DNA of 59,867 nt, taken from positions 1 through 59,867 of the forward strand of contig CANOCU010000018.1 in the NCBI GenBank assembly GCA_947564645.1. The letters are read 5' to 3'. Of this stretch, positions 31,109 to 59,810 are shown in pieces. The notes under the pieces are model-generated. The model searched no databases. It was not told the DNA's origin and saw only the letters and a list, made by a program, of their open reading frames with translations. Numbering within the stretch: the stretch's first letter is position 1; each line of letters starts with the position of its first letter. The position numbers were made by a program, and so were the translations under genes. Source of the stretch: an uncultured Lachnospiraceae bacterium (GTDB lineage: Bacteria > Bacillota > Clostridia > Lachnospirales > Lachnospiraceae).

Positions 31109-31185
31109 TATAATACCAATATAAGGTTACTATCAATAAGTACAGCGATGCATCTGTACAGGAGTCACAGAAAGCAGGTGATCAT

Positions 31186-31335: not shown

Positions 31336-31338
31336 ACC

Positions 31339-31394: not shown

Positions 31395-31406
31395 GTGAAA
31401 AGAGCG

Positions 31407-32963: not shown

Positions 32964-33018
32964 GGAATACCTCACGTTTGTATTACTAAGATCAGCTTTT
33001 CAAAAAACACGCAGCCAG

Positions 33019-33159: not shown

Positions 33160-33215
33160 TTTCGTGAGAACATGATTCACACTATGGTTACATATATGAA
33201 AGGGAGAGGTTGCAG

Positions 33216-34403: not shown

Positions 34404-34475
34404 AAAGTCTGCCATAGGCGCAGTGCAAGGCGGCGCCCGCTTTAGGGGTGTCTGTGTTGAAATCGGAGAACGGTT

Positions 34476-35237: not shown

Positions 35238-35238
35238 T

Positions 35239-36756: not shown

Positions 36757-36789
36757 ATATCGAAATATAAGAAAGGCTATGCTGTCGCA

Positions 36790-39500: not shown

Positions 39501-39913
39501 GATCTATCTTCCCTTCCTCAAAATAAAATGAACGTTGCAAATGATTGTGAATGTTGAAACTGTTGCAAATATTGAAATTGTAAGGTTGTTCTTGTATTGT
39601 GTCAGTTATGGTGGATAAAGTCAAGCGGATATAACGTAAAATGACGTATTTAGTGATGTAAACTATCGCGGAATACAAGAATATTATGTAAATCTCTTCA
39701 AAATAGTTGTAAAAACGGCACAAAGCCAAAAAATCTTGAATGTAATGCGGTTCTATGCTATAATGTTACAGGCTTATTTACGGAGAGAGTTTACATAAGA
39801 TATATTCTCGGAGGACGTGAAGTGAACTTGAAATCAGATCTGTGTTCGACGGTTTGACGACAAGACCGTCCAAAACAGGTATCATGACAGAAGAAGCTGA
39901 TAAGGGGTATGGA
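39501..39913. other. Leader and promoter region of the GH25 gene
   Basis: The 413-base region has no supported gene. It is AT-rich on the left. It holds the strong promoter at 39736-39764, giving an RNA leader of about 140 bases. In that leader GACGGT and ACCGTC (about 39848-39872) can form a hairpin. An in-frame GTG at 39842 and ATG at 39884 lack good ribosome binding sites. Confidence 0.5.
39736..39764 (+). promoter_or_regulatory. Strong sigma-A promoter of the GH25 gene
   Basis: TTGAAT (39736-39741) and TATAAT (39759-39764) are separated by exactly 17 bases, with TGC just before the -10 (extended -10). It is the best-matching promoter in the window. Confidence 0.85.
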
Positions 39914-42900: not shown

Positions 42901-43030
42901 GCTGGCGCAGTATGCCAGTGCGCCGACTTACACGGCTACGCGATATGATATGTGGCAGTACTCTTCCAGGGGGAAAGTCAGCGGGATCAGCGGTGATGTG
43001 GATATGAATATCAGCTATCTGCACTATTAG
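39914..43030 (+). CDS. Membrane-anchored GH25 lysozyme with acidic repeats and Ig-like domains
   Basis: The 1038-residue protein has a cytoplasmic N-terminal part (1-180) dominated by 10-residue acidic repeats (E-D-E-E-Y-E-D-D-E-Y). One membrane segment follows at about 190-212. Next come a SpaA-like domain (about 275-375, L-K-I-K-F-V-N-K-A-T-G), three Ig-like BIG2-type domains (about 476-740), and cell-wall-binding-like repeats (about 755-840). A C-terminal GH25 muramidase domain (843-1038) starts G-I-D-V-S-K-W-N-G and carries acidic residues in F-L-D-V-E-A-S. The start at 39914 is chosen because AAGGGG lies just upstream. It would cleave peptidoglycan while anchored in the membrane. Confidence 0.87.
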   Translation: MQRKRNNEKKRIHKANREDAFIEEFFAEEDEGFDEEDEDSVTGDTLEFLCLDDETIEAYQKKNRSAGPERRRSSGGRYGNNRYEDEEYEDDEYEDEEYEDDEYEDEEYEDDEYEDEEYEDDEYEDEEYEDDEYEDEEYEDDEYEDEEYEYGEYADDEYEDEEYEYDAYEDEREGMITRIRDFLTHMSTMDMMVAMLGIVVLAGIFLAGGLYVNARSVAKQVDAFASVGEEMEGISVIGESGLLAVSESARLANMVELEEEEEKETEEVKEEQDKNGSIEVVLNLTSIKSDLKIKFVNKATGKLIGSVPFEVEVSGSQKTFGLKDEDRDGIIYQTDVAAGNYNVKIKPLADSKYAEYKLPSSASSVKVTDTITYKKVDVADEVKTEAEVNAAAEDTAIQNTVVESALKDTVEWVESTKTPVGEGQTVYTEVDKKNIPDPWTVSSAYRKLVESGDVTMLSAETPLTEDNTGTDQPAVEFAVALDNSSLTLKQGETTALSVYISGSDAYPDVVWISNAPSIASVDGNGNITAVSEGETTITAEATIEGVTERASCSVKVTASGEQPSEPDQPENPGNPETPVKTKVTLNSTSLTLKKGAAASLMVQVTAGEVQSVDWVSSNTSVVTVKGGSVTAVGVGSATITAKVKAADGNQDLVCNVTVQDTDQNTYTKIEISGDKEVAVGKTITLTARTEPKDGKVTWTSANTAVATVDDKGVVTGVAEGTVEIRAVCAEATNISAGYKITVKKSATVDGKAKLKDKDGNQMYYLDAAGAYQEAVYDDYKKYDKFYKKSSEASAYRYTGWQTIDGSVYFYDKNGNYVTGEQVIQGAKYSFGSDGRMSSNSGSMGIDVSKWNGNIDWNAVKNSGVSYVIIRCGYRGSSTGVLVEDPKFRSNIKGAKAAGLKVGVYFFSQAVNEVEAVEEASMALSLVSGYGLNYPVFLDVEASGGRGDGISREARTAVCKAFCATIQNSGYAAGIYANKTWFSEKINTGSLTGYKIWLAQYASAPTYTATRYDMWQYSSRGKVSGISGDVDMNISYLHY
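40163..40372 (+). repeat. 30-base tandem repeat encoding an acidic tract
   Basis: Seven units of GAGGATGAAGAGTACGAAGA + CGACGAGTAC (six nearly identical, the seventh diverged), with decayed units to about 40431. Each encodes ten residues, eight of them acidic. The copy number is likely to vary between strains. Confidence 0.92.
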
Positions 43031-43324: not shown

Positions 43325-44404
43325 ATGAGAACGTATCTTGTAACGGGAGGAGCCGGATTTATCGGATCCAATTATATTCACTATATGTTTCGCAAGTATG
43401 GCAGGGAGATTCGGATCATTAACGTGGATGCTCTGACTTATGCGGGAAATCTGGAGAATCTGAAGGAATTTGAAGATTGGGACAATTATACCTTTGTGAA
43501 GGCGGATATCTGTGATAAAGATTTGATCGCAGCTATCTTTGCAGAGAATGAGATCGACAGGGTCGTACATTTTGCGGCGGAGACTCATGTGGACAGGAGC
43601 ATCAGGAATCCGGAAGTGTTTGTACAGACCAATGTGCTTGGTACGGCGGTGATGCTTAACTGTGCCAAGGCGGCGTGGGAGCTGCCGGACGGCAGTTTTA
43701 AGGAAGGGAAGCGGTTCCTGCATGTCTCTACGGATGAGGTATACGGATCCCTGGAGGAGGACGGCGGCTACTTCTATGAGACGACGCCCTATGCGCCGCA
43801 CAGTCCTTATTCGGCAAGCAAGGCAGGCTCGGACATGTTGGTGAGATCCTATATGGATACCTATCATTTTCCGGCCAATATTACCAACTGTTCCAATAAT
43901 TACGGACCATATCAATTTCCGGAGAAACTGATCCCGCTGATCATCAACAATGCGCTGCAGGGGAAGAAGCTGCCGGTCTACGGTGACGGTAAGAATGTGC
44001 GTGACTGGCTGTATGTGGAGGATCATGCCAAGGCGATCGACATGGTGCAGGAGCGGGGCCGGCTGTTTGAGACGTATAATGTGGGCGGTCATAACGAGAA
44101 GCAGAATATCGAGATCATCAAGATCATCATCAGGACTTTGCAGGAGATGCTGCCGGATGACGATCCGAGAAGGGAACTTGTCAACGAGCAGCTGATCACT
44201 TATGTGGAGGACCGCAAGGGACATGACAGAAGATACGCCATAGCGCCGGATAAGATCAGACAGGAGATCGGCTGGGAGCCGGAGACCATGTTTGAGGAAG
44301 GAATACGCCGCACGATCCAGTGGTTCTTTGAGAATGAAGAGTGGATGAAGAACGTGACGAGCGGCGATTATCAGAAGTATTATTCGGAGATGTATCAGGT
44401 ATAG
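43325..44404 (+). CDS. rfbB: dTDP-glucose 4,6-dehydratase
   Basis: The 359-residue enzyme is a short-chain dehydrogenase fold with G-G-A-G-F-I-G-S-N-Y (NAD site, residues 8-17). The catalytic T-D-E-V-Y-G and Y-S-A-S-K (Tyr about residue 161) are present, and E-T-H-V-D-R-S-I-R-N is the RmlB signature. It converts dTDP-glucose to dTDP-4-keto-6-deoxyglucose. It starts after AAAAAGGAGG and opens the long operon. The hairpin-rich leader precedes it. Confidence 0.95.
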   Translation: MRTYLVTGGAGFIGSNYIHYMFRKYGREIRIINVDALTYAGNLENLKEFEDWDNYTFVKADICDKDLIAAIFAENEIDRVVHFAAETHVDRSIRNPEVFVQTNVLGTAVMLNCAKAAWELPDGSFKEGKRFLHVSTDEVYGSLEEDGGYFYETTPYAPHSPYSASKAGSDMLVRSYMDTYHFPANITNCSNNYGPYQFPEKLIPLIINNALQGKKLPVYGDGKNVRDWLYVEDHAKAIDMVQERGRLFETYNVGGHNEKQNIEIIKIIIRTLQEMLPDDDPRRELVNEQLITYVEDRKGHDRRYAIAPDKIRQEIGWEPETMFEEGIRRTIQWFFENEEWMKNVTSGDYQKYYSEMYQV

Positions 44405-44452: not shown

Positions 44453-45322
44453 ATGAAGGGAATTATTCTTGCGGGAGGCTCGGGTACCAGGCTGTATCCG
44501 TTGACCAAGGCTGTTTCGAAACAGATCATGCCGATCTATGATAAGCCGATGATCTATTATCCCCTGTCCACTTTAATGCTGGCAGGGATCAGGGAGATCC
44601 TGATCATATCAACACCGAGAGACCTTCCGTCTTTTCGGGAGCTGTTCGGCACCGGTGAGCAGTTGGGACTGCGGATGGAGTATGCGGTGCAGGAACATCC
44701 GCGGGGACTGGCGGATGCTTTCATCATAGGCGCAGACTTTATTGGCAGCGACAGGGTCGCGCTTGTGTTGGGCGATAATATTTTCTACGGGCAGAGCTTT
44801 TCCAAAGTGCTCAGGGAAGTGGCAGCGAGAGAGAATGGCGCGACTATTTTCGGATACTATGTCAGAGACCCGAGGGAATATGGCGTAGTGGAGTTTGATG
44901 AGACGGGCAGAGCCTTGTCCATCGAGGAGAAGCCAGAGCATCCGAAGAGTAATTATGCAGTTCCGGGACTGTATTTCTATGACAATGACGTTGTGGAGAT
45001 CGCGGCTAATGTGAAGCCTTCGGCCCGGGGGGAGATTGAGATCACAAGCATTAACAATGAGTATCTGCGCAGAGGGGATCTGCGGGTGGAGACGCTGGGT
45101 CGTGGTTTTGCCTGGTTGGATACGGGGAACCATGATTCTCTGCTCGATGCGGCGGATTTTGTGGCGGCGTTCCAGAAGCGGCAGGGCCTGTATATTTCCT
45201 GCATAGAAGAAATTGCCTATAAGAGAGGATTTATCACCAGGGAACAGCTGTTACAGCTGGCGGAACCATTGATGAAGACAAATTATGGGCATTATATGAT
45301 TGAGGTTGCGAATGGGCTCTAA
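44453..45322 (+). CDS. rfbA: Glucose-1-phosphate thymidylyltransferase
   Basis: The 289-residue enzyme begins [16 protein letters not shown] (residues 3-18). It has [16 protein letters not shown] and the D-N-I-F-Y-G motif. It makes dTDP-glucose from dTTP and glucose-1-phosphate, the first step of dTDP-rhamnose synthesis. The glucose-1-phosphate would come from the phosphoglucomutase at 56499. Its 3' end overlaps the GH25 gene by 11 bases. Confidence 0.95.
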
Positions 45323-46670
45323 GAAAATGAAAAGAATGCTGATTGCGATCGTGTTTTTGTTCGTGGTGTTGACGGGAGCGCTCGCGGCAGCAAATCTTGA
45401 TCAGGTGAAACAGAAACTGGGCATCACGGCCAAGGAGCAGACCGAAGCGGCGGTGATGCTGGACGGGGGAGAGGAAGATGGCAGGCAGAGAGGCAGCAAT
45501 CTTTCCGCTTTTCTCCAGGATGAGACTTTTTTTGATCCAGAAGTCAAATTTAAGAGTATTGAGAGTTATTCCGGACGAAGTGTGTTTCTGATGATGAGTT
45601 CGGTAGCAAAAGATCTTCGTATTATGATCGTGGACAGCACGGGCAGTCTGGTGACCGGAACTCCTTTTGTAGTCGAGCTGCGGGATGTGGGAGAATATAC
45701 TGACAATGATGAGGACGGTATCGTCTATATTGATGGACTGCGGGCCGGAGAGTACAATGTTTCCTTAAAAGAGACAGAAGGGTATCAGGTTCCGAATACG
45801 ATCACCTCGATCCAGATCAAGCAGGAGATCGAGTATCAGGTACTGGATGACATAGAGTATTTGATCATGACGGAAGACGATATAGACGCCGAGAAAGAGG
45901 ATAAAGGTGTAAACGGGGCGGCAGAGGATGCGGACGGCACTGAGGATACAGGCCTGAAACTAGCGGAAGGAAGTGCGAAACTGGGCATTGACGTCTCCAA
46001 GTGGAATAAGACGATCGATTGGGAAGAGGTCAAGGATGCCGGTGTGGAATTTGCGATCATACGATGCGGGTATCGCGGTGCATCCAGTGGTGCGCTTGTC
46101 CTGGATCCCTTGTATGAGCAGAATATCAGGGGCGCCATAGCGGCGGATATTCCCGTGGGCGTGTACTTCTTTACGCAGGCTGTAGATGAGGTGGAGGCCG
46201 TGGAAGAGGCCAGCATGGTGATCCGGCTGATCGAGGAGTATGATGTGGATTATCCGGTCTTCTTAGACAGTGAGAGCGCGGGCGGCAGCGGCCGGGCGGA
46301 CTGGCTAGAGACCGGTGAGAGGACGAAGATACACAAGGCGTTCCTGGAAACGATAAGCGCTGCCGGCTATGAAACCGGTATATACGGTTCCAGAAACTGG
46401 CTCAACGAGCAGGTCGATATGAAGGAGTTGTCCGACTACAAGACCTGGCTTGCCGAATATACGGATATTCCTGCCTATGAAGAGTATTATCATATGTGGC
46501 AGTATACCTCCAGGGGAACGGTAGACGGCATCGAGACGAATGTGGATCTGAATCTGTGTTATATGAATATCGATACTTCCATCGACCATTCCAGGGGGGC
46601 GGCCGGCTATTCCGGGGTGATCAACGGGGACAGCGGTAACGTGCCCGTCGGTGGCGATGAGGATCAGTAG
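45312..46670 (+). CDS. Second membrane-anchored GH25 lysozyme
   Basis: The 452-residue protein has an N-terminal membrane anchor (about 8-28), a SpaA-like domain (about 95-180, with T-P-F-V-V-E-L and D-N-D-E-D-G-I-V-Y), an acidic linker, and a GH25 domain from about 225. The GH25 part starts [10 protein letters not shown] and has F-L-D-S-E-S-A. It is a shorter relative of the GH25 at 39914, lacking the acidic repeats and Ig domains. It overlaps rfbA, so it is part of the glycan operon. Its start follows GAGGTTGCGA. Confidence 0.88.
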
Positions 46671-46760: not shown

Positions 46761-47324
46761 ATGGGTAAAATAACAGTAGAGATTTGTGAGATAGAGGGAC
46801 TTAAGGTGATCACGCCGACCGTATTCGGAGATGCCCGCGGCTATTTTATGGAGACCTATAATTATAATGACTTTAAGGAAGCGGGGATCGATCAGATCTT
46901 TGTACAGGATAATCAGTCAGCATCGACGAAGAACGTACTTCGCGGTTTGCATTTTCAGATCAATTTTCCGCAGGATAAGCTGGTCCGGGTTGTGAGCGGT
47001 GAGGTTTTTGATGTGGCAGTGGATCTGCGGCCAGGCTCTGCAACCTATGGGAAGTGGCATGGTGTAGTGCTCTCGGCGCAGAACCGAAAGCAGTTTTTCA
47101 TTCCCAAGAATTTCGCACATGGATTTCTTGTATTGTCTGATTATGCGGAGTTTGCCTACAAATGTACGGATTTTTATCATCCGAATGATGAAGGCGGCAT
47201 TATCTGGAACGATCCGGACATTGGTATATCATGGCCGATCCCGGAAGGCACGCAGCTGATCATGTCCGAGAAGGATCCGAAGTGGGGCGGACTTGCCGAG
47301 TATACGGAGAAATATCGTAAATGA
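46761..47324 (+). CDS. rfbC: dTDP-4-dehydrorhamnose 3,5-epimerase
   Basis: The 187-residue cupin-fold enzyme has D-A-R-G-Y-F-M-E-T-Y, the N-Q-S-x-S-x-x-x-V-L-R-G-L-H-F-Q signature (His about residue 60) and F-F-I-P-K-N-F-A-H-G-F. It epimerises dTDP-4-keto-6-deoxyglucose to the L-rhamnose configuration. The final reductase gene rfbD is absent from the window. It overlaps the ABC permease gene by four bases (ATGA). Confidence 0.94.
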   Translation: MGKITVEICEIEGLKVITPTVFGDARGYFMETYNYNDFKEAGIDQIFVQDNQSASTKNVLRGLHFQINFPQDKLVRVVSGEVFDVAVDLRPGSATYGKWHGVVLSAQNRKQFFIPKNFAHGFLVLSDYAEFAYKCTDFYHPNDEGGIIWNDPDIGISWPIPEGTQLIMSEKDPKWGGLAEYTEKYRK

Positions 47325-48367
47325 GAAATTCGAATGTGGAAAAAACAGAGTATATCAATCATTCTACGAAGAAGGTAAAAACGCCTAAGAAGTCGGTCGG
47401 TGTTGCCATATTCTGGGCGCTTGGTCTGATCCTGGCGGCTGTGCTCGTACATCATCACAACCCGTTGGCGGATCAGGTGACGGAGCAGATGAAGAAAGTC
47501 AGCGGCTGCGTTCTGATCGCCTTTACCTGCATTATCTTTACGATTTATTACGAGAGGATACTGACCATTCCGGCAGAGCTTTTTCAGAGCAGGAAACTGA
47601 TCTGGAAGCTGGCGAAGAATGATTTCAAGAATCGATACGCCGGTTCTTATCTCGGCATTATCTGGGCAACGGCACAGCCGGTCGTCACCGTGTTAATGTA
47701 TTGGATCGTTTTTGACAAGGTTTTTGACACGAGGAGCCAGTTGGTGGCGAGCGGGCTGGAGGTGCCTTATGTACTGTATCTGACCGCCGGTCTGGTACCC
47801 TGGTTCTATTTTTCTGAGGCGATCACGCAGGGCACCATGGCTTTGATCGAATATAATTATCTGGTTAAGAAGGTGGTGTTCAATATCAGCATTCTGCCGA
47901 TCATCAAGGTGATCGCGGCTACGTTTATCCATGTTTTCTTTGTAGTAGTATTGCTATGCGTATCGATAGGATACGGTTATTATCCCAATCTGTATACGCT
48001 GCAGCTGATTTACTACAGTTTCTGCCTGTTCCTGCTTGTGCTCGGCATGAGCTATCTTACCTGTGCGCTTGTGGTCTTCATCAGGGACTTACAGCAGGTT
48101 ATTGCCATAGCGCTGCAGATCGGTATGTGGGCGACGCCCATCCTGTGGAGCATTACGATGTTGAAGACGGATAATATGAAGATGCTGTTTAAGCTGAATC
48201 CACTGGTGTATATTGTCAATGGCTACAGAAGCGCTATCTATGAGGAAGTATGGTTCTGGGAGCATTTTTATTCGTCTACTTACTTTTGGATTTTTACGAT
48301 CAGCCTGTTTTGTATCGGGACGTTGGTCTTCAGAAGGATGCGGGTGCATTTTGCGGATGTACTCTGA
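47321..48367 (+). CDS. ABC-2 type polysaccharide exporter permease (Wzm-like)
   Basis: The 348-residue membrane protein has six segments of the ABC-2 family in residues 115-345. The motif L-A-K-N-D-F-K-N-R-Y-A-G-S-Y-L-G-I-I-W-A is the Wzm/TagG signature. An extra N-terminal part (1-85) with two more membrane segments precedes it and is unusual. With the ATPase that follows it would export the completed glycan. The stop lies 13 bases before the ATPase start. Confidence 0.9.
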   Translation: MRNSNVEKTEYINHSTKKVKTPKKSVGVAIFWALGLILAAVLVHHHNPLADQVTEQMKKVSGCVLIAFTCIIFTIYYERILTIPAELFQSRKLIWKLAKNDFKNRYAGSYLGIIWATAQPVVTVLMYWIVFDKVFDTRSQLVASGLEVPYVLYLTAGLVPWFYFSEAITQGTMALIEYNYLVKKVVFNISILPIIKVIAATFIHVFFVVVLLCVSIGYGYYPNLYTLQLIYYSFCLFLLVLGMSYLTCALVVFIRDLQQVIAIALQIGMWATPILWSITMLKTDNMKMLFKLNPLVYIVNGYRSAIYEEVWFWEHFYSSTYFWIFTISLFCIGTLVFRRMRVHFADVL

Positions 48368-48380
48368 CTAAGAGGTAATT

Positions 48381-49754
48381 ATGGATAATATTGCGATACA
48401 GGTGACGGATGTCGAAAAAGTTTATAAGTTGTATGACAAGCCCTCGGACCGTCTGAAAGAAGCGCTCGGGATAGGGCGCGGGAAGCATCACAGAGAACAT
48501 CATGCCCTGAAGGGGATTAACCTGACAATCAGGCAGGGGGAGTGTGTCGGCATCATCGGAACGAACGGATCCGGCAAGTCCACGCTCTTAAAGATCATTA
48601 CCGGAGTCCTGAACCCGACCAGGGGCAATGTGACGGTAAACGGACGGATCTCTGCACTGTTGGAGCTCGGTGCAGGGTTTAACAATGAGTACAACGGCAT
48701 CGAGAATATCTATCTGAACGGGACCATGATCGGTTTCACGAAGAAAGAGATCGATGAGAAGCTGGATTCTATTCTTGAATTTGCAGATATCGGAGACTAT
48801 GTGTATCAGCCCGTAAAGACTTATTCCAGCGGCATGTTTGTCCGCCTTGCCTTTGCGGTGGCGATCAATATCGATCCGGAGATCCTGATCGTGGACGAAG
48901 CATTGTCGGTGGGAGATGTTTTCTTCCAGGCGAAATGTTATCATAAATTCGAGGAATTTAAGGAGATGGGTAAGACCATCGTTTTTGTCAGTCATGATCT
49001 GAGCAGCATCAGTAAATACTGTGACAGGGTAGTACTCTTAAACCAGGGAACGAAGCTGGGAGAGGGGTCGGCGAAAGAAATGATCGACACCTATAAGCAG
49101 GTGCTTGTAGGGCAGTATGTCGTACCGGAAACAGAGCAGGCGCAGGAGCGACTGGTTGACGATGAGCAGCTGCGAAATGCCGTGAAGGCCAAAGGGGGCG
49201 CGACGTCCCGGAAGGTGGCGGAAGCGGCGCAGGACGCTGATCCTTCCGGTCAGAATGGCTCCGGTGCATCGGCAGGCGGCGGTATTGCGGAGAATCCTGA
49301 ACTGTTGGAATATGGTTCGAAGAAAGCCGTGATCACAGAGTACTATATCTATGACGATAAGGGGATTACAACCTCCGCGATCTTAAAGGGGAATCCGTTC
49401 ACGATCCATATGAAGGTGCAGATGATGGAAGATCTCCAGGCGCCTATTTTTGCTTTTACGATCAAGAATGTGCGTGGGACGGAGATCACGGGTACCAATA
49501 CCATGTTTGAGAAGGCCTTTCTCGATCCGGTGAAGGCGAAAGAAGTCTATGAGGTGAATTTTACACAACAGATGGATCTGCAAGGGGGAGAATATCTGCT
49601 TTCCCTGGGCGTGACCGGTTACGAGGAGGATGATTTTACCGTCTATCACAGGCTGTATGATGTGCTAAATCTGACGGTTATTTCAGATAAAAATACAGTT
49701 GGCTTTTATGATATGAATTCTAAGATAGAGGTAAAAAGGGATGGCGGAAAGTAG
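48381..49754 (+). CDS. ABC exporter ATPase with C-terminal glycan-binding domain (Wzt-like)
   Basis: The 457-residue protein has an ABC domain (1-240): Walker A is G-T-N-G-S-G-K-S-T (about residues 60-68), the signature is Y-S-S-G-M-F-V-R-L-A, and Walker B is I-L-I-V-D-E-A. A low-complexity linker follows (about 255-300). The C-terminal beta-sandwich (about 310-457, G-N-P-F-T-I-H-M-K-V and Y-L-L-S-L-G-V-T) resembles Wzt carbohydrate-binding domains, which read the capped end of a polymer. The following gene, a methyltransferase-kinase, overlaps by 14 bases. Confidence 0.9.
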   Translation: MDNIAIQVTDVEKVYKLYDKPSDRLKEALGIGRGKHHREHHALKGINLTIRQGECVGIIGTNGSGKSTLLKIITGVLNPTRGNVTVNGRISALLELGAGFNNEYNGIENIYLNGTMIGFTKKEIDEKLDSILEFADIGDYVYQPVKTYSSGMFVRLAFAVAINIDPEILIVDEALSVGDVFFQAKCYHKFEEFKEMGKTIVFVSHDLSSISKYCDRVVLLNQGTKLGEGSAKEMIDTYKQVLVGQYVVPETEQAQERLVDDEQLRNAVKAKGGATSRKVAEAAQDADPSGQNGSGASAGGGIAENPELLEYGSKKAVITEYYIYDDKGITTSAILKGNPFTIHMKVQMMEDLQAPIFAFTIKNVRGTEITGTNTMFEKAFLDPVKAKEVYEVNFTQQMDLQGGEYLLSLGVTGYEEDDFTVYHRLYDVLNLTVISDKNTVGFYDMNSKIEVKRDGGK

Positions 49755-51852
49755 GATAGAAGAGATCGGTAAGATCAGGCTGGATCTGACACATTATCCG
49801 GGGGAAGACTATTACTGTGACGGTGAGGTGGAAGATGAGCTTCTGCAGATTGCCCGCAATTATTCCACGGTGGAATATCAGCGTATCATTGAGGAGAAGC
49901 AAAGCTGGCCGATCCTCTATCATCTGTCTGCTCTGCGCGAGAATATCGTAGAGTGGCTGCCGGTCACGAAGGATATGAAGGTATTGGAGGTCGGGGCAGG
50001 CTGTGGGGCGATCACGGGTGCGCTTGCCAGAAAGGCAGGAGAGGTGACATGTATCGATCTGTCGGGTAAGCGTAGCAGGATCAATGCCTATCGCCACATG
50101 GATGCTGACAATGTGACGATCCATGTGGGAAATTTTCAGGATATCGAACCGGATCTTGCCACGGATTATGATTATGTCTGCCTGATCGGCGTGTTTGAAT
50201 ATGCACAGGCGTATATTCAGTCCGACAAGCCCTATGAGAGCTTCCTGAATATCCTCAAGAGGCATGTAAAGCCGGAGGGACATATCGCGATTGCCATAGA
50301 GAATAAATTTGGCCTGAAATACTGGGCAGGGTGCAGGGAAGACCATCTGGGGACCTATTTTGCCGGATTGGAGAACTATCCTGACGGCGGTGTGGTGAGG
50401 ACGTTTACGAGGGACGGACTGCTTGAGATTGCCAGGAAATGTGGATTTGCAGAGGCACAGATGTACTATCCCTATCCGGATTATAAGTTTATGACAAGCC
50501 TGTATTCTGATGAGAGGCTGCCGCAAGTGGGAGAACTATCCTTAAATCTGCGCAATTTTGACAGAGACAGGCTGCAGCTGTTTGATGAGAAGAAGGTATT
50601 TGATACCATCATACAGGAGAAACAGTTTCCGCTGTTCTCCAATTCTTATATGCTCTTGCTGGGACCCAGGCTGGAAGAGCAGTATGTGAAGTATTCGAAT
50701 GACAGAAAAGAGGAATTTTGCATTAAGACCGTTCAGCGGGAGAGCGGACAGGGAAAAATGATCGAGAAACATCCGTTATCCAGGGCGGCCTGGCAGCATA
50801 TCGGGAATACGGCTGATATGGCGGACAAATTATCTGCGCGCTATGAAGGAAGCGGCTTATCCATCAATCGGTGCAATCTGGTGAAAACAGGGGATGGGAC
50901 GCCTTGTCTGCAGCTTGCGTATGTGGAAGGAGTCAGGCTGGAGGAGCTGTTGGATGAATGTCTGGAGAAGAACGATGTGGACGGATTTCAGGGTCTGTTT
51001 GATGAGTATCTGAGGCGGATTTCCCAGGGAGAAGACCAGAAGAGGGCCGACTATGATCTGATCTTTGCGAATATTATCATTCCGGGTGATATTCGTGACG
51101 ACTGGACGGTGATCGATTATGAATGGAGTTTTGAGAAGCGTATCGAGACGAGAGAGATCGCTTTTCGTGCAATCTACTGTTATTTATTAGAAAATGAGAA
51201 GCGCAACAAGCTAAATCTGGATTTGATTATGGAGAAACTGGGTATTACGCAGGCTGAGGCGGAGCAGTACCGCAGGCAGGAGATGACCTTCCAGCAGTAT
51301 GTGACCGGCAGACATATGTCTATGGCGCAGATCCGTGAGGCGATCGGTTATCCTGTCTATACGATAGAGGATATTTGTCTTGAACAGAGGCGGCCGGATG
51401 ACAGTGAAAGAATCCAGATCTATGAAGATACCGGCAAGGGGTTTCGGGAAGAACAGTCGTTTTTTCTGGATGCGGCCATGGAAGAACAGGTGCGGGTGAC
51501 TGCGGAAGGCATGACGGAATTGGAAGTGGTTATCGGCAGGGGCAGAAGCGCCCTGCGGATCGATCCTGGCAGTGAGCAATGTCTGGTCTACCTTCAGACT
51601 GTGAAATGGAACGGCACGGTGATTTCTCTGAAAGGCAGACAGGTACGGAACAACGGATGTAAGGCAGGAGAGAATACTTATGTCTTTCCGACTAAGGATC
51701 CCAATATTATTATTTCGCTGGAAGGACTGCACAGTGAGGAGCGTAACCTGCTTCAGGTGAGTATGGCAGTGACCAGGCTGCCCGCAGAGACGGCGGAGCA
51801 TATGCAGAAAAGAGGTTTTTTGGCGTATGAGCAGAGGAGCAGAAAAGTATAA
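49741..51852 (+). CDS. Methyltransferase-kinase fusion, WbdD-like chain terminator
   Basis: The 703-residue protein has an N-terminal SAM methyltransferase (about 50-240) with V-L-E-V-G-A-G-C-G-A-I-T-G (about 80-92). A kinase-like domain follows (about 310-500). It contains Lys329 in F-C-I-K-T-V, an Asp439/Asn444 pair in D-L-I-F-A-N and Asp459 in V-I-D-Y-E-W, as in aminoglycoside-phosphotransferase-type kinases. A beta-rich domain ends it (about 560-690). This order and its place next to a Wzt with a glycan-binding tail mirror E. coli WbdD, which caps O9a/O8 chains. Function here is inferred. Confidence 0.72.
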   Translation: MAESRIEEIGKIRLDLTHYPGEDYYCDGEVEDELLQIARNYSTVEYQRIIEEKQSWPILYHLSALRENIVEWLPVTKDMKVLEVGAGCGAITGALARKAGEVTCIDLSGKRSRINAYRHMDADNVTIHVGNFQDIEPDLATDYDYVCLIGVFEYAQAYIQSDKPYESFLNILKRHVKPEGHIAIAIENKFGLKYWAGCREDHLGTYFAGLENYPDGGVVRTFTRDGLLEIARKCGFAEAQMYYPYPDYKFMTSLYSDERLPQVGELSLNLRNFDRDRLQLFDEKKVFDTIIQEKQFPLFSNSYMLLLGPRLEEQYVKYSNDRKEEFCIKTVQRESGQGKMIEKHPLSRAAWQHIGNTADMADKLSARYEGSGLSINRCNLVKTGDGTPCLQLAYVEGVRLEELLDECLEKNDVDGFQGLFDEYLRRISQGEDQKRADYDLIFANIIIPGDIRDDWTVIDYEWSFEKRIETREIAFRAIYCYLLENEKRNKLNLDLIMEKLGITQAEAEQYRRQEMTFQQYVTGRHMSMAQIREAIGYPVYTIEDICLEQRRPDDSERIQIYEDTGKGFREEQSFFLDAAMEEQVRVTAEGMTELEVVIGRGRSALRIDPGSEQCLVYLQTVKWNGTVISLKGRQVRNNGCKAGENTYVFPTKDPNIIISLEGLHSEERNLLQVSMAVTRLPAETAEHMQKRGFLAYEQRSRKV

Positions 51853-54274
51853 TTGGGCGGCCTATTATGCGGCGGCTTACGAGAAAGAGCGTAAACAGAA
51901 TATCGTACTGGCGGAGCAAATTGCAGATGCGGAGAGAAGGCAGGCAGATCTGAGCGATAATCTGGAGCGGATCTGTGCGACTCCGTTCTGGAAAGCAACG
52001 GTACCCTTTCGGAAACTGCAGCAGGACAGAAGGGATCGTCTGCAAAAGAATAAGGAGAAAGACAGGTGTTCTGAAAAGAACGCCTGTCTTCTGCGTTATA
52101 CGAAGGAGGTACAGCGTCAGAAACAGCCATACGGAGAATGGCTGTCCGAGAGAAATAGCTGTAGTTATGGATGTGATGAACTAAGTGGGGAGATGAGCGA
52201 CTGGCAGGCTGTCCGGATACCGGAATCGGATATCGTACTGTTGACTTATGGCGGTGGTGCGCTCAGTTCCTGCGCATTTAAGGAAATCAAATCTTATTTT
52301 GACAATCATAAATCATGTGTTATAGCTTATACGGATGAGGATTTTTACTGGCAGGATCTGTCGCAGCGTATGCAGCCATGGTTTAAGCCCTGTTACTCTC
52401 CGGACACCCTGTTATCTTATAATTACTGGGGCCATCTTGTTGCGGTCCGGGAGAGCTTTCTGATGGATGTGCTGCAGGAGGATGGAGTCCGCAACAGTCA
52501 TTTTCAGGATGAGGACACCGGACAGGCTGCAAGATTCTATAATCTCTGTCTGTATCTGGAAGAAGCAGTGATGCGGCAGGAACAGCTGCGGGGTGTGCCG
52601 GCGGCGGAGGCGGTCGGTCACATTCCGGCAGTGCTTTTTCATCAGCTGTATGTACCTGACAGCAGGGAGAGTGAATCGATTGAGGCGTGTGATACGAAGG
52701 AGGAGCGCTTTATCCGGGCAGAACAGGGGTTAGTCCGGGAACTGGAGGCGGGGCTGCATCTGACAGGCGCCGGGAAAGAATATACAGGCGTCAGGGAAGC
52801 GGCGCTGTACAGACGCGGGAGAAGGGGGAGTCTGCAATGCGGCCCGGAGCCGGATGTTTATCATATTGTTTACGATACTTCCATATCAGGCAGAGACCGC
52901 TGCGTCCGCGCGCAGAGCGCCGACAGACATATCCATCCGCATCCGCTTGTATCTGTGGTGATTCCGTCAAAGGATCATCCGGAGGTTTTGGAACAGTGCC
53001 TTAAATCGTTTCGTAATAAGACGCAATACGGCTGTTATGAATGGATCGTGGTGGACAATGGCAGTACCGGCGAGAACCGGGACAGGGTCCTGAAACTGCA
53101 GCAGGAATATGGATTTAGGTATCTTTACGAAAAGATGCCCTTTAATTTTTCCAGAATGTGCAATATGGGAGCGGCAAAGGCGCAGGGGGATCTGTTGCTG
53201 TTTCTGAATGACGATATGGAAATTCTGGAAAAAAGCTGGCTTGCACGAATGGTAGGGCAGGCGATTCAGCCACATACGGGAGCAGTGGGAGCGAAGTTGT
53301 GGTATGCCGGTACGAGACGGATCCAACATGCCGGTATCACGAATCTGAAGATCGGGCCGTCCCATAAACTAATCACGTTTGAGGATGACAGAGATTACTA
53401 TTATGGCCGTAACCGGGTGGCTTACAATATGATCGGGGTGACGGCGGCCTGTCTGTTGGTGGCGAAGTCAAAATATGAGCAGGTGGGCGGTTTTGATGAG
53501 GAGATGGCCGTTGCCTACAATGATGTCGACTTTTGTTTTAAACTGGCAGAGGCCGGATATTATAATGTGCTAAGAAACGATGCGGTGCTGTATCATCATG
53601 AATCATTGAGCCGCGGCCTGGATGAGTTTGATGAGAATAAGTGGGAAAGGCTGCTTGGGGAAAAGAAACATCTTTATGCCAGACATCCGCAGATGGAAGG
53701 GAGGGATCCGTTCTATCATGAGGATTTGATCGATAATGCATCTGATTACAGGTGTAACTATAAGTTTGCCCATGAAGATTCGCTTTGTACGATGGAGGTG
53801 GCACCGCTGCATGACGAGGCGTCCGGACGGATCCGGGAAGAGAGTCTGTACCTGATCGTAGACAGGGCGGAAATGCAGCATAAGATATGGGAGGAAGATC
53901 CGGATATCTTGTGGATCATGGGATGGTGTTATGTGCCGGGTGAGGACAATGCGCTCTATGACAAGATGCTGCTTCTGCGGAGAAAGGAGCAGAAAGATAC
54001 CTGCGAAGCGGAGCCGGGATCTTGCCGTGCCAGGACAGACCGGGGGGACATGGGCGGTCCGGGTTACCGGGCAGTTCCGGCAGACTGGAGCCGCAGGGAC
54101 GTGGTGGAAAGTCTGCGCGGGGAGGAGCATATCGAGCTTGCCGGATTCGTGCTGCGTGTTTTGAAAAAGGATCTGGAGGCCGGGACCTACCGGGTCGGGA
54201 TGGTATGTACGAACCAGGTGACGGGGGAGAAGGCACTTGCGTGGAGTGAGAAGGAGATAACGGTCGGCGTTTAG
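51827..54274 (+). CDS. Double-GT2 glycosyltransferase, first domain degenerate
   Basis: The 815-residue protein has an N-terminal coiled-coil-like part with F-W-K-A-T-V-P-F-R-K. A first GT2-type half (about 110-270) follows in which the metal-binding loop D-H-D-D of relatives reads T-Y-G-G, so it is probably inactive. A second, intact GT2 domain (about 370-620) has S-V-V-I-P-S-K-D-H, I-V-V-D-N-G-S-T and F-L-N-D-D-M. A C-terminal beta-rich tail (about 680-815) is present. The gene overlaps the methyltransferase-kinase by 26 bases. It would extend the polymer. Confidence 0.82.
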   Translation: MSRGAEKYNWAAYYAAAYEKERKQNIVLAEQIADAERRQADLSDNLERICATPFWKATVPFRKLQQDRRDRLQKNKEKDRCSEKNACLLRYTKEVQRQKQPYGEWLSERNSCSYGCDELSGEMSDWQAVRIPESDIVLLTYGGGALSSCAFKEIKSYFDNHKSCVIAYTDEDFYWQDLSQRMQPWFKPCYSPDTLLSYNYWGHLVAVRESFLMDVLQEDGVRNSHFQDEDTGQAARFYNLCLYLEEAVMRQEQLRGVPAAEAVGHIPAVLFHQLYVPDSRESESIEACDTKEERFIRAEQGLVRELEAGLHLTGAGKEYTGVREAALYRRGRRGSLQCGPEPDVYHIVYDTSISGRDRCVRAQSADRHIHPHPLVSVVIPSKDHPEVLEQCLKSFRNKTQYGCYEWIVVDNGSTGENRDRVLKLQQEYGFRYLYEKMPFNFSRMCNMGAAKAQGDLLLFLNDDMEILEKSWLARMVGQAIQPHTGAVGAKLWYAGTRRIQHAGITNLKIGPSHKLITFEDDRDYYYGRNRVAYNMIGVTAACLLVAKSKYEQVGGFDEEMAVAYNDVDFCFKLAEAGYYNVLRNDAVLYHHESLSRGLDEFDENKWERLLGEKKHLYARHPQMEGRDPFYHEDLIDNASDYRCNYKFAHEDSLCTMEVAPLHDEASGRIREESLYLIVDRAEMQHKIWEEDPDILWIMGWCYVPGEDNALYDKMLLLRRKEQKDTCEAEPGSCRARTDRGDMGGPGYRAVPADWSRRDVVESLRGEEHIELAGFVLRVLKKDLEAGTYRVGMVCTNQVTGEKALAWSEKEITVGV

Positions 54275-54359: not shown

Positions 54360-56354
54360 ATGGAACAAAAGGAACAGGCTCAGATGACGGAGGAAGAGGC
54401 CCTGCGCTTTTACAGGGACGCTTATGAGCGGGAACGGAAGAAGAACCGGTTCTTAAGCGGCCGCCTGGCGGATGAGGAATATAAGAACAGGGAGCTGGAG
54501 AAGAAACTGGCGGACATCAAGGGAACGTTACTCTGGCGTCTGTCCAAGCCGTTGCGGAGTCTGGTGCACTGGGTACACCGCACGAAGGAGCGGGTCGGCA
54601 GATACGGGGATCTGAAAGGGATCCTGCGTAAGCTGAATGCCAAGGGGATAGAGCGTAAGGCCAGGATCCAGCATGGGACGGCCAGTTTTCCGAATGAGGA
54701 GGAGGCCAGGAGACAGCGGGAGACCAGATTTGACGGAAATGTCAGATTTAGTATTCTGGTGCCGTTGTACAATACACCGGAGAAATTCCTAAGGCAGGCG
54801 ATCGAGTCGGTGACGGCGCAGACTTATCCGAATTGGGAATTGTGCCTGGCGGACGGTTCCGATGCGGGACATCCCGAGGTGGAGCGGATCTGCAGGGAAT
54901 ATGGGGCGAAGGACGAAAGGATCCGGTATCGGAAACTGGCTAAGAATGAGGGAATCTCCGGCAACACCAATGCCTGCCTGGATATGGCGACCGGTGAGTA
55001 CATTGCGCTGTTTGACCATGATGACGTGCTGCATCCCAGCGTGCTCTATGAATACAGGAAGGTGATCAGTGAGCAGGGGGCCGATTATATTTACTGTGAC
55101 GAGGCTACTTTTCAGGGGAATAAGACCATCGACGATATGATCACCCTGCATTTTAAACCGGATTTTGCCCCGGACAATCTGCGGGCGAATAATTACATCT
55201 GTCATTTCAGCGCATTTGACCGGAAACTATTAGAGTGTATGCCCCTGTTCCGATCGGAATTTGACGGCAGTCAGGACCATGACATGATCTTACGTCTGAC
55301 CGCCAAAGCAAAATGTGTGGTGCATGTGCCGAAACTGCTCTATTACTGGCGTTCCCATGCGGGCAGCGTGGCTTCCGATATCAACGCCAAGACTTATGCC
55401 ATCGAGGCGGCCAAGGGGGCTGTGGCGGCAAGTCTGAGACAGCAGGGCTTTGATAATTTCGAGATCACTTCGACCAAAGCTTTCGAGACGATCTTCCGGA
55501 TCAAATATGAGATACTGGGGAACCCCAAGGTGAGCATTGTGATCCCCAACAAGGATCATCAGGAGGATCTGCAGCGGTGTATCACGTCGATTCTGGATAA
55601 GAGTACTTACGACAATTTCGAGATCATCGTGGTGGAGAACAACAGCACGACTGATGAGATCTATGCGTATTATCAGAAGATTCAGGAGAGCGCCAATATC
55701 CGGGTGATCACGTATGAAGGAGATTTCAATTATTCCAGGATCAATAACCTGGGCGTGGAGAATGCTCAGGGTGACTATGTCCTGCTGCTCAACAATGACA
55801 CGAAGGTGATCACGCTGGACTGGATCGAGGAACTGCTGATGTATGCCCAGCGTAAAGACGTGGGGGCGGTGGGCGCAAAGCTCTACTATGAGGACAAGAC
55901 GATCCAGCACGCAGGCGTGGTGCTGGGCCTGGGAGCGCACAGGACGGCGGGACACAGCCATTATCGTGTCAGCAGCAACAATCTGGGCTATATGGGCAGG
56001 CTCTGCTACGCGCAGAATGTGATGGCGGTAACGGGCGCATGTCTGATGATGAGGAAGACATTGTTTACAGAGCTTGGAGGTTTGGATGAGAATTTTGCCG
56101 TTTCTCTAAATGATGTGGATCTTTGTGTGCGGGCATGGCAGGCAGGGTATGTCAATGTGTTCACGCCCTTTGCGGAGCTGTATCATTTCGAGTCCGTTTC
56201 CCGCGGCCTGGATAACGCCGGGGAGAAGGCGGCGCGGTATGACAGAGAGTCGGAGGAGTTCCGGACGAAATGGAAGGACGTACTGGAGAAGGGAGATCCC
56301 TATTATAATGTGAATTTCTCACTGGATCGGAGCGATTTTGCGTTGAAGATCTGA
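54360..56354 (+). CDS. Double-GT2 glycosyltransferase, both domains intact
   Basis: The 664-residue protein has an N-terminal helical part ending L-L-W-R-L-S-K-P-L-R. The first GT2 domain (about 125-360) has S-I-L-V-P-L-Y-N-T and L-F-D-H-D-D-V-L. The second GT2 domain (about 390-640) has S-I-V-I-P-N-K-D-H, I-V-V-E-N-N-S-T and L-L-N-N-D-T-K. Both keep their metal-binding acids, so the protein could add two sugars or form a repeat. It is the central member of three related proteins in the operon. GAAAGGAAA precedes the ATG. Confidence 0.86.
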   Translation: MEQKEQAQMTEEEALRFYRDAYERERKKNRFLSGRLADEEYKNRELEKKLADIKGTLLWRLSKPLRSLVHWVHRTKERVGRYGDLKGILRKLNAKGIERKARIQHGTASFPNEEEARRQRETRFDGNVRFSILVPLYNTPEKFLRQAIESVTAQTYPNWELCLADGSDAGHPEVERICREYGAKDERIRYRKLAKNEGISGNTNACLDMATGEYIALFDHDDVLHPSVLYEYRKVISEQGADYIYCDEATFQGNKTIDDMITLHFKPDFAPDNLRANNYICHFSAFDRKLLECMPLFRSEFDGSQDHDMILRLTAKAKCVVHVPKLLYYWRSHAGSVASDINAKTYAIEAAKGAVAASLRQQGFDNFEITSTKAFETIFRIKYEILGNPKVSIVIPNKDHQEDLQRCITSILDKSTYDNFEIIVVENNSTTDEIYAYYQKIQESANIRVITYEGDFNYSRINNLGVENAQGDYVLLLNNDTKVITLDWIEELLMYAQRKDVGAVGAKLYYEDKTIQHAGVVLGLGAHRTAGHSHYRVSSNNLGYMGRLCYAQNVMAVTGACLMMRKTLFTELGGLDENFAVSLNDVDLCVRAWQAGYVNVFTPFAELYHFESVSRGLDNAGEKAARYDRESEEFRTKWKDVLEKGDPYYNVNFSLDRSDFALKI

Positions 56355-58295: not shown

Positions 58296-58332
58296 ATCGC
58301 CCTGTGTTGATGCAGGGCGATGGTTGTTTTTT
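58296..58332 (+). terminator. Rho-independent terminator
   Basis: ATCGCCCTG (58296-58304) and CAGGGCGAT (58313-58321) form a perfect 9-base stem with a GTTGTTTTTT tail. It ends the mutase transcript. The glycosyltransferase start lies 48 bases later, so that gene needs its own promoter or read-through. Confidence 0.88.
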
Positions 58333-58379
58333 ACTCAAAAGTTTTAGCTTTGGGGAAAGAAGAGCTTGGGAGTGTGGCG

Positions 58380-59810
58380 ATGGGCAGGCAGATCATCAGT
58401 GTGGATAATTTCAACAAAACCGTGCGTTATTTCAGGAAAAACGGAATTCGACATGCCTATTATGCGGCAAAGGAACGGATTGAGGAGAAGAAAAGAGACT
58501 GCTATTGCTACAGGGAGCCGTCCGCCGCAGTTTTGGAGAAGCAGAGAGAGGAGACGGCGGATAGCCGTGATCTGTTCAGCATTGTTGTACCGGCTTATGA
58601 GACCAGGGAAGTGTTTTTACATGAGATGATCGATTCCGTGCGAGGACAGAGCTATGGAAAGTGGGAATTGATCATAGTTGATGCAAGCAGCAGCTCGTCG
58701 GTAGAGAAAGCCGTTGGACAAATCCTTGAGGAGACGGCGGATGAACGTATTAAGTATCAGCATTTGAGAGAAAATAAGGGCATCTCGGGAAATACGAATG
58801 CAGGAATCGAGACGGCCAGGGGAGATTATATCGCGTTGCTCGACCACGATGACCTGCTTGCTCCGGATGCCCTGTATCATATGGCAAAGGCTCTGCAAAG
58901 GTGCAGGGAGAAGGGAGAGCAGCCGGCGCTGCTCTATTCGGATGAAGATAAGTTTGAAAATAGAGATGACGATAACGGCAGTTATACGTCTGCGCATAGA
59001 AAATCGGAGTTTAATCTGGATTTGATCTTATCCAATAATTATGTGTGTCATTTCATGGCAGTGGAAGCGGGGCTTATGAAAAGGTTGAAACTGCGGGAGG
59101 AATATGACGGTGCACAGGACTATGATCTGGTATTGAGAGTAGTGGATCATGTGTACAGGACGACGATTTTGCAGGATTTTATGCAAAAATTTGTGCATAT
59201 TCCGGAAATTCTTTATCATTGGCGCTGTCATGCAGGATCTACGGCGCAAAATACGGCCAGTAAGACCTATGCCTATGAGGCAGGTAAAGCGGCGCTGGAA
59301 GACTTCTGCCACAGACGGGGGTGGGAGGTGAAGGTTGCGCACAGCCTGCATCTTGGATTCTATGAGATCACTTATCTGCCGGATCTTTTGTCAGTGCGCA
59401 AAGAGATAGGAATCGTGGGCGGCAGGATCCTGGATGCGGACAAAAAGATCCGTGCCGGCGCTTATGACAAGGATGGCGCCTGTATGTATGAGGGGCTTCA
59501 CAGGGAATACAGTGGCGGGAGTACGCACCGGGCAGTGTTGAAACAGGATGTCTATGCCGTGGATATCCGTTGTATGCAGGTAACACCGGCGTTATGGAAA
59601 GTCTATGAGGAGATTACCGGACTGCCGTACCGTGAAAGAGTGATACGGTATGGGAGAGGAAAGGGTAAGTCGGAACGATCCATTGCGGATCTTTCAGGAC
59701 TTGGCTGCGATGAGGCAGGATACAGGAAACTCAGCATGGAGCTTGGAGCAGCCGCTGCCAGGCTGGGCTATCTGGTGGTTTGGGATCCTTCCATAACATG
59801 CAGTATTTGA
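58380..59810 (+). CDS. Double-GT2 glycosyltransferase, second domain degenerate
   Basis: The 476-residue protein has an intact first GT2 domain (about 65-300), with S-I-V-V-P-A-Y-E-T, I-I-V-D-A-S-S-S, L-L-D-H-D-D-L-L and a late Y-H-W-R-C-H-A-G-S. The rest (about 330-476) aligns by eye with the back half of a second GT2 domain (I-G-I-V-G-G-R-I-L-D) but has lost the nucleotide-binding start and the metal acids. The start at 58380 follows GGGAG. An in-frame ATG at 58320 lies in the terminator and is rejected. It is the third member of the double-GT2 set. The 57 bases after it show nothing. Confidence 0.84.
   Translation: MGRQIISVDNFNKTVRYFRKNGIRHAYYAAKERIEEKKRDCYCYREPSAAVLEKQREETADSRDLFSIVVPAYETREVFLHEMIDSVRGQSYGKWELIIVDASSSSSVEKAVGQILEETADERIKYQHLRENKGISGNTNAGIETARGDYIALLDHDDLLAPDALYHMAKALQRCREKGEQPALLYSDEDKFENRDDDNGSYTSAHRKSEFNLDLILSNNYVCHFMAVEAGLMKRLKLREEYDGAQDYDLVLRVVDHVYRTTILQDFMQKFVHIPEILYHWRCHAGSTAQNTASKTYAYEAGKAALEDFCHRRGWEVKVAHSLHLGFYEITYLPDLLSVRKEIGIVGGRILDADKKIRAGAYDKDGACMYEGLHREYSGGSTHRAVLKQDVYAVDIRCMQVTPALWKVYEEITGLPYRERVIRYGRGKGKSERSIADLSGLGCDEAGYRKLSMELGAAAARLGYLVVWDPSITCSI

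What the first reader, a model, noticed from the sequence alone, without database searches (positions are those of the whole stretch)
48381..51852. WbdD-like methyltransferase-kinase with a glycan-reading Wzt in a Gram-positive
In E. coli O8/O9a a methyltransferase-kinase (WbdD) caps the chain, and the Wzt C-terminal domain recognises the cap to license export. Here a fused SAM methyltransferase and APH-type kinase-like domain directly overlaps a Wzt with a C-terminal beta-sandwich. A cap-and-export mechanism in a Clostridia wall glycan would extend this logic beyond Gram-negative O antigens. The kinase residues K329, D439/N444 and D459 are visible.
Basis: partly seen in the sequence, partly recalled or inferred. 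Interest (0 to 1): 0.7.

Follow-up and report, generated by a model that had tools for sequence, protein, structure and literature searches.

The report
Gram-positive glycan cap-and-export gene pair
A bacterium of a Gram-positive gut family carries an enzyme that probably puts a methyl-phosphate cap on the end of a finished cell-wall sugar chain, next to an exporter subunit whose tail looks built to recognise that cap; such cap-gated export has so far been shown for Gram-negative O antigens.

Summary

It is not WbdD by descent: its kinase shows no significant sequence match to WbdD. The closest characterised enzyme in layout is the methyltransferase-kinase terminator ORF6 of Klebsiella O7; a Pseudomonas protein of that layout aligns at 27% identity. 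Wzt was found beside the gene in 79 of 80 named loci.

New here: where Aquifex Wzt stacks Trp362 on a methyl cap, E. coli O8 and O60 have Trp, but kinase-linked Wzts (E. coli O9, O99, Pseudomonas, Citrobacter, and 76 of 76 tails of this class in the window's family) have Arg in R-x-Y; other tails of that family have it in 1 of 37. Best reading: a methyl-phosphate-capped, rhamnose-containing wall glycan whose cap licenses export. The cap itself is untested.

The parts
43325..44404 (+). rmlB-like dTDP-glucose 4,6-dehydratase (rhamnose donor pathway)
   Evidence: Pfam (GDP_Man_Dehyd/Epimerase); RmlB label inferred from operon context
44453..45322 (+). rmlA-like glucose-1-phosphate thymidylyltransferase
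   Evidence: Pfam NTP_transferase E 1.7e-77; RmlA label inferred from operon context
46761..47324 (+). rmlC, dTDP-4-dehydrorhamnose 3,5-epimerase
   Evidence: PF00908 E 2.9e-72
47321..48367 (+). wzm-like ABC permease
   Evidence: PF01061 E 4.4e-16; overlaps rmlC by 4 nt
48381..49754 (+). wzt: ABC ATPase with cap-binding-type C-terminal domain
   Evidence: PF00005 and PF14524; 37% identity to E. coli O9 Wzt; best PDB match A. aeolicus Wzt
49308..49715 (+). Wzt_C domain (residues 310-445)
   Evidence: PF14524
49650..49661 (+). R424-L-Y-D427 motif of Wzt_C; R424 aligns with A. aeolicus Trp362 (methyl-cap stacking residue)
   Evidence: Trp362 role from PMC9445017 (passages)
49741..51852 (+). methyltransferase-kinase, proposed chain terminator
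49741..50661 (+). class I SAM methyltransferase domain (about residues 1-307)
50662..51399 (+). protein-kinase-like domain (about residues 308-553); D439, N444, D459 invariant in the family alignments
   Evidence: model; fold matches; PDB profile search; conservation
51406..51810 (+). beta-rich third domain (about residues 556-690), at the place of the Ig-like CBM reported in Klebsiella O7 ORF6
   Evidence: secondary structure of model; fold not searched alone
51827..54274 (+). GT2-family glycosyltransferase, 815 aa (overlaps the terminator by 26 nt)
   Evidence: PF00535; homologue is the next matched gene within 300 nt in 70 of 73 named loci with at least 3 kb downstream
54360..56354 (+). two-module GT2 protein, 664 aa, homologous to the C-terminal GT pair of the fused Pseudomonas protein
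   Evidence: PF00535, two stretches; 34% identity E 5e-120 to P0005
56367..58220 (+). phosphoglucomutase/phosphomannomutase
58320..59810 (+). GT2-family glycosyltransferase, 496 aa
   Evidence: PF00535

Best explanation
The 703-aa protein is a chain terminator of the Klebsiella O7 ORF6 type. After a rhamnose-containing glycan has been built in the cytoplasm on a lipid carrier (inferred), its kinase domain phosphorylates the non-reducing terminal sugar and its methyltransferase domain methylates that phosphate (inferred from the characterised enzyme of the same layout). [quoted passage not shown] The exported glycan is then attached to the wall, probably by an LCP ligase encoded elsewhere in the genome (inferred). 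Shown here: the two enzyme folds, invariant catalytic residues, close linkage to one class of Wzt tail, fusions with glycosyltransferases in relatives, homology to Gram-negative proteins beside wzm-wzt, and the cap-pocket signature.
For: Kinase fold and active site: (90 PDB sequences at E up to 10, the 60 shown all protein kinases, best E 1.1e-4). Methyltransferase. Gram-negative homologue: Pseudomonas asturiensis 1457-aa protein after the ABC permease and ATPase genes, 27% identity, E 2e-45, with D439, N444, D459, E461 and W462 aligned to identical residues. Klebsiella ORF6 O7 has the same order; its D441A variant loses kinase activity and export (PMC11231755, section 11 read). Linkage: 66 of 76 high-scoring Wzt_C places lie within 1.5 kb upstream of a match to the fusion on the same strand, against 0 of 37 lower-scoring ones. 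Cap pocket: R-x-Y in 76 of 76 of that class and in E. coli O9, E. coli O99 (its next gene is 44% identical to WbdD), P. asturiensis and C. braakii; W in A. aeolicus and E. coli O8 and O60; R-x-Y in 1 of 37 others. A tree of tails joins the kinase-linked tails of both cell types, support 96/87 and 93/84. Fusions: kinase and GT pair in one chain (L134, L140, L146).
Against: No glycan structure, enzyme assay or binding datum exists for this organism. ORF6 O7 itself was not available, so homology rests on a Pseudomonas protein of the same layout. In that protein the residue aligned with K343 is His, and Citrobacter has Arg there and Glu in place of D459, so the kinase active site is not uniform across the wider family. 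The window terminator lacks the coiled-coil ruler of WbdD and ORF6, so length control must differ. The Legionella relative is reported to lack helix alphaC (PMC9758233), while this model has one. No WecA/TagO-type initiating enzyme was found; the single PF00953 match is MraY by its neighbours, although four WbaP-type transferases are present. Related genomes are not independent, so the motif counts overstate the number of events. The Wzt class boundary (130 bits) was set after seeing the scores. The caps of O99, O60, P. asturiensis and C. braakii are not known to me.
Confidence: 0.73

Rival explanations
1. The enzyme decorates internal residues (each repeat unit, or a side sugar) with phosphate or methyl-phosphate; it does not cap the chain end, and Wzt_C binds the decorated backbone.
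For: In several relatives the kinase is fused to glycosyltransferase modules, which could suit decoration during synthesis; no coiled-coil ruler was found in the window protein.
Against: The same kind of fusion in Klebsiella ORF6 O7 is a terminator acting at the chain end (PMC11231755). The Wzt tail is of the cap-binding family and its changed residue sits in the cap pocket.
Confidence: 0.13
2. Only one of the two activities caps the chain: phosphate alone or methyl alone is the signal, and the other domain does something else (for example modifies the lipid-linked primer).
For: In some relatives methyltransferase and kinase are separate ORFs; E. coli O8 uses a methyltransferase without kinase (PMC3482155; gene order).
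Against: Both active sites are conserved together and the Wzt pocket has the kinase-linked Arg form, not the Trp form of O8 and A. aeolicus.
Confidence: 0.09
3. The kinase domain is catalytically dead or serves another substrate (a protein or nucleotide sugar), and Wzt simply exports the glycan without reading a cap.
For: Sequence similarity to known kinases is weak (best E 1.1e-4); other members of this fold phosphorylate proteins and antibiotics; the candidate lysine is not kept in the Gram-negative relatives.
Against: D439, N444 and D459 are invariant in 50 of 50; linkage is to one Wzt_C class.
Confidence: 0.05

Closest known systems
ORF6 N-terminal half, Klebsiella pneumoniae O7 (methyltransferase-kinase terminator; PMC11231755)
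   Same: Order methyltransferase, unannotated kinase domain, then a beta-rich (here) or Ig-like (there) domain; APH-like kinase; dTDP-rhamnose genes and Wzm/Wzt beside it; GT2 pair in the same system
   Different: Here no ruler coil was found and the GT2 pair lies in a separate gene; Gram-positive family; orthologs named in the paper are alpha- and gammaproteobacteria and cyanobacteria
Lcin_0519 kinase-methyltransferase family (PMC9758233)
   Same: Kinase plus methyltransferase in one chain; Wzm, Wzt and a glycosyltransferase as neighbours in part of the genomes; stated to differ from WbdD
   Different: Groups named in the main text are proteobacterial (a category of others is not itemised there); reported to lack helix alphaC; not studied experimentally according to that paper
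WbdD, E. coli O9/O9a (PMC3482155)
   Same: Methyltransferase then kinase; order wzm, wzt, terminator, GT; partner Wzt tail has Arg at the same place
   Different: No significant kinase sequence match; WbdD has a coiled coil and a C-terminal membrane region, not found here
WsaE with Wzm/Wzt, Geobacillus stearothermophilus S-layer glycan (PMC2943079)
   Same: Gram-positive; N-terminal methyltransferase caps a rhamnan; Wzt predicted to read the cap
   Different: 2-O-methyl cap, no kinase mentioned in the passages seen; methyltransferase fused to rhamnosyltransferases
Aquifex aeolicus Wzt cap-binding domain (PMC9445017)
   Same: Same transporter and tail family; best PDB match to the window Wzt
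   Different: Reads 3-O-methyl sugar with Trp362, which aligns with Arg424 here

Membership tests
WbdD (E. coli O9/O9a) | N-terminal class I SAM methyltransferase | tested here: met
   Pfam; fold matches
WbdD (E. coli O9/O9a) | Kinase domain homologous to the WbdD kinase by sequence | tested here: not met
   hmmsearch gave a 40-residue stretch at i-E 0.1 and hhalign 19 columns at probability 1.1%; the whole-chain profile aligned the methyltransferase only
WbdD (E. coli O9/O9a) | Long coiled-coil ruler after the kinase in the same chain | tested here: not met
   Crude heptad scan of my own: positive in WbdD (the one known positive), P0005 and P0006, none in the window protein; no trained predictor was available
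WbdD (E. coli O9/O9a) | Follows wzm-wzt and precedes polymerase GT genes | tested here: met
   Window order matches E. coli HS O9; polymerase role of the window GTs is inferred
O7-type methyltransferase-kinase terminator (ORF6 N / Lcin_0519 type) | Order methyltransferase, kinase, then an Ig-like domain | tested here: inconclusive
   Methyltransferase and kinase shown in that order; third domain seen only as a beta-rich segment, its fold not searched
O7-type methyltransferase-kinase terminator (ORF6 N / Lcin_0519 type) | Sequence homology through the kinase to a protein of O7 layout | tested here: met
   P. asturiensis protein, 27% identity over query 25-628, E 2e-45; kinase HMM domain E 3.7e-5 on it
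O7-type methyltransferase-kinase terminator (ORF6 N / Lcin_0519 type) | Direct homology to Klebsiella ORF6 O7 | not tested
   That sequence was not obtained
O7-type methyltransferase-kinase terminator (ORF6 N / Lcin_0519 type) | Coiled coil in the same chain (common in the family) | tested here: not met
   crude heptad scan of the window protein; one relative, L020, has a long charged C-terminal helix-like extension by eye
O7-type methyltransferase-kinase terminator (ORF6 N / Lcin_0519 type) | Places methyl-phosphate on the terminal rhamnose | not testable with these tools
   Needs enzyme assay and NMR
Protein-kinase-like/APH fold | Two-lobed kinase fold with D-x4-N catalytic loop and DFG-type Asp | tested here: met
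Cap-reading Wzt (Wzt_C family) | NBD plus C-terminal Wzt_C domain | tested here: met
   E 3e-42
Cap-reading Wzt (Wzt_C family) | Tail binds the chain cap | not testable with these tools
   Needs a binding assay; residue signature only

The most novel reading that the evidence does not exclude
Lachnospiraceae make a methyl-phosphate-capped wall glycan whose export is gated by the cap, and the Wzt tail carries a readable chemical code across cell types: Trp at the Trp362 position for a methyl cap, Arg in R-x-Y for a methyl-phosphate cap. The code follows cap chemistry and not the ancestry of the kinase, since WbdD-type (E. coli O9, O99) and O7-type kinases pair with the same kind of tail. In the window's branch the ruler has been uncoupled from the terminator.
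Probability: 0.55. Interest if true: 0.76.

Novelty: new variant of a known kind. Interest (0 to 1): 0.63.

Why it matters
If true, chain-end quality control by a phosphate-type cap is not a peculiarity of LPS O antigens but a general device that also governs wall glycans in a widespread family of gut bacteria; 76 of 150 sampled genomes of the window's family carry the matching Wzt tail. It gives those genomes a testable function for a gene that Pfam recognises only as a methyltransferase, predicts the cap chemistry from one residue of Wzt, and would let the chain end of unstudied glycans be predicted from sequence. It also raises the question of how chain length is set without a ruler on the terminator.

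Tried and rejected
Whole-model fold searches listed methyltransferases in every row shown, so the kinase domain was predicted and searched alone. WbdD structures did not appear among the 50 rows shown; that is inconclusive and not counted against membership. A search of the E. coli collection with the Citrobacter terminator DNA found nothing. Pfam on the 50 single kinase domains gave mostly chance families; Pkinase matched 4 of 50 (best E 4.6e-6) and APH 1 of 50. I first suspected a coiled-coil ruler on the N-termini of the two downstream glycosyltransferases; the heptad scan did not support it (its only hit there, GT664 residues 617-644, lies elsewhere and looks false), so it is not claimed. 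I first took the single PF00953 match in the genome for a WecA/TagO enzyme; its neighbours (a penicillin-binding protein and a MurD-like ORF, read by eye) make it MraY, so that claim was dropped and WbaP-type transferases were sought (four). The Lani_1194 kinase-methyltransferase family of PMC9758233, which has Clostridium members, was set aside: its lysine equivalent is R38, so its kinase comes first (inference; sequences not compared). The one-ORF Wzt-terminator reading in L038 is not used as evidence: a neighbouring protein there carries X residues. The A. aeolicus residue numbers printed are off by one (residue = index minus 1, recognised from I299, M353 and D354); searches use P0002 numbering. 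The alignment of the six or so most divergent low-class tails (L192-L197, five of them under Pfam's cut-off) is unsure at the motif. The tail tree left out 6 of 37 low-class rows; one search left out 11 of 37 and used 19 of 75 high-class rows: the joint clade stayed, support 93/84.

Searches of print: (open-licence PMC library only; listings seen, selected papers opened) showed no report of a methyltransferase-kinase terminator in Gram-positives; paywalled work was not searched.
Full report
The finding and its coordinates check out. The Wzt ORF runs 48381-49754 and the fusion ORF 49741-51852, overlapping by 14 nt. The fusion overlaps the next gene, an 815-aa GT2 glycosyltransferase, by 26 nt. 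The cluster reads rmlB, rmlA, a GH25 lysozyme-type gene, rmlC, wzm, wzt, fusion, GT2 (815 aa), GT2-GT2 (664 aa), phosphoglucomutase, GT2. Elsewhere in the same genome lie a strong RmlD match (E 4.1e-96), two LCP-family ligases and four WbaP-type initiating transferases, one of them on the same contig as an LCP gene. The only PF00953 match is MraY by its neighbours, so no WecA/TagO enzyme was found; the assembly is 91% complete. A WbaP-type start with Wzm/Wzt export is also reported for Geobacillus (PMC2943079). The fusion occurs once in the genome. That the product is a wall glycan, and that the host belongs to Lachnospiraceae, are inferences; the latter rests on the closest named relatives (77% identity in L032).

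It is not WbdD. The whole profile aligned to E. coli O9 WbdD (strain HS) only in the methyltransferase, and the kinase profile gave nothing significant. The closest characterised enzyme in layout is ORF6 of Klebsiella O7 (PMC11231755; section 11 read, passages): methyltransferase, an unannotated 223-residue kinase, an Ig-like domain, a coiled coil and two GT2 modules. It adds methyl-phosphate to a terminal rhamnose; the D441A variant lost kinase activity and export. I could not obtain that sequence. A plasmid-borne Pseudomonas protein that follows an ABC permease and ATPase has methyltransferase and two GT2 stretches and aligns with the window protein at 27% identity (E 2e-45, query 25-628), with D439, N444, D459, E461 and W462 matched; its GT pair aligns with the window's 664-aa protein at 34% (E 5e-120). 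These two records, Pseudomonas and Citrobacter, were the only matches among 72,556 plasmid records. A survey of Legionella kinases describes the Lcin_0519 family, partly beside Wzm and Wzt, and calls it distinct from WbdD (PMC9758233; section 9 read, passages). The groups named for that family and in the O7 paper do not include Gram-positives.

Linkage. Of 30 loci from the first family search, 29 have the Wzt as the preceding ORF of at least 200 aa; in the thirtieth (L028) a Wzt_C lies about 1.6 kb upstream. Of 80 named loci, 79 hold the Wzt: 78 as an upstream ORF (76 within 600 nt) and one in the same ORF; the other contig starts 134 bases before the gene. Of 73 named loci with at least 3 kb downstream, 70 have the 815-aa GT homologue next within 300 nt. 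In relatives the kinase is fused with the GT pair in one chain (L134, L140, L146) or with at least one GT2-like module (L136-L139, L144, L145), and in some the methyltransferase is a separate ORF. In the family sample of 150 genomes, 93 have some match to the fusion (E up to 1e-3; weak ones may be plain methyltransferases). Across the phylum it is 16 of 398 at E 1e-10, only 2 of the 16 over the full length in one piece, the window included. The kinase profile hits 11 of 291 genomes of the class, 9 of them in this family.

The Wzt tail. In the 150 genomes Wzt_C domains fall in two score classes: 76 places above 130 bits, each in its own genome, and 37 at 121 bits or less. Of the first, 66 of 76 lie within 1.5 kb upstream of a fusion match, and all 76 genomes have a match to it, some only partial; of the second, 0 of 37. 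The cut was chosen after seeing the gap in scores. In A. aeolicus Wzt, Trp362 stacks on the 3-O-methyl cap and its replacement by Leu essentially abolishes LPS binding (PMC9445017, passages). That position is Trp in E. coli O8, followed by a methyltransferase without kinase, and in O60, whose cap I do not know. It is Arg in E. coli O9 (phospho-methyl cap) and O99 (next gene 44% identical to WbdD), and in Pseudomonas and Citrobacter. It is Arg in 78 of 78 usable named loci (80 less L038 and L088), and R-x-Y in 76 of 76 of the high class, 75 fetched plus the window. Of the 37 low-class tails, 18 have Tyr, 7 Phe, 5 Trp, 2 Arg and 5 others; R-x-Y occurs in 1 of 37, and that one has a fusion match 1.8 kb away on the same contig and strand. 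A tree of tails places the kinase-linked tails of Gram-negatives and of the window's family together, apart from A. aeolicus, O8 and O60 (96/87; 93/84). As WbdD and the O7-type enzymes have unlike kinases, the tail appears to follow cap chemistry. These rows are related, so the counts are not independent events, and R424 has not been shown to touch a phosphate.

Most likely mechanism. The glycan is polymerised on a lipid carrier; the fusion phosphorylates the non-reducing terminal sugar and methylates the phosphate; the Wzt tail binds that cap, and Wzm/Wzt exports only capped chains. The folds, active sites, linkage and signature are shown; the cap, its position and the gating are inferred from ORF6 O7 and WbdD. 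The main mechanical difference is that no coiled-coil ruler was found in the window terminator (crude heptad scan, positive in WbdD and in the two Gram-negative relatives), so chain length may depend on the relative rates of capping and polymerisation.

Novelty. Cap-gated export in Gram-positives had been proposed for methyl-capped S-layer glycan (PMC2943079, passages) and, with an unknown terminator, for L. lactis rhamnan (PMC5596347, passages). The methyltransferase-kinase terminator is known from Gram-negatives, with orthologs reported in cyanobacteria. A phosphate-type version in Clostridia with a matching Wzt tail was not found in the searches listed under Tried and rejected; I rate it a new variant of a known kind.

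Noticed in passing
window 45300-46670: A GH25 lysozyme-type protein sits inside the rhamnose/export operon between rmlA and rmlC; a homologue lies upstream in 71 of 80 named loci (contig ends not corrected). Why a wall hydrolase should travel with glycan export genes is not explained.
   Followed up: partly
window 39842-43030: Large GH25 protein with bacterial Ig-like domains and a long acidic EYEDDEYEDE repeat near its N-terminus.
   Followed up: no
L038 8600-12112: Wzt and the methyltransferase-kinase read as one 1170-aa ORF; a real fusion or an assembly error, since a neighbouring protein in this locus carries X residues.
   Followed up: no
L161 (G023): A lower-scoring Wzt_C with RRYD whose contig carries a fusion match 1.8 kb away on its upstream side: the gene order is reversed but the signature is kept.
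   Followed up: partly
L200 5039-5908: In E. coli O60 a 289-aa hypothetical protein follows wzt where O8 and O9 have the terminator; the Wzt tail has the Trp form, so this could be an unrecognised methyl-type terminator.
   Followed up: no
L135 6371-12043: An 1890-aa protein with methyltransferase and kinase at its N-terminus and about 1370 further residues not matched by the window glycosyltransferases.
   Followed up: no
G000 contig C98, 2048-3690 (own genome, outside the window): A WbaP-type initiating transferase match lies about 0.6 kb before an LCP-ligase match, a possible start and end of the same glycan pathway.
   Followed up: no
window 23884-37845: A second group of surface-type genes: DUF6044, radical SAM/SPASM, GDSL hydrolase, GT2, DUF6077, MBOAT acyltransferase, perhaps another glycan or its acylation.
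   Followed up: no
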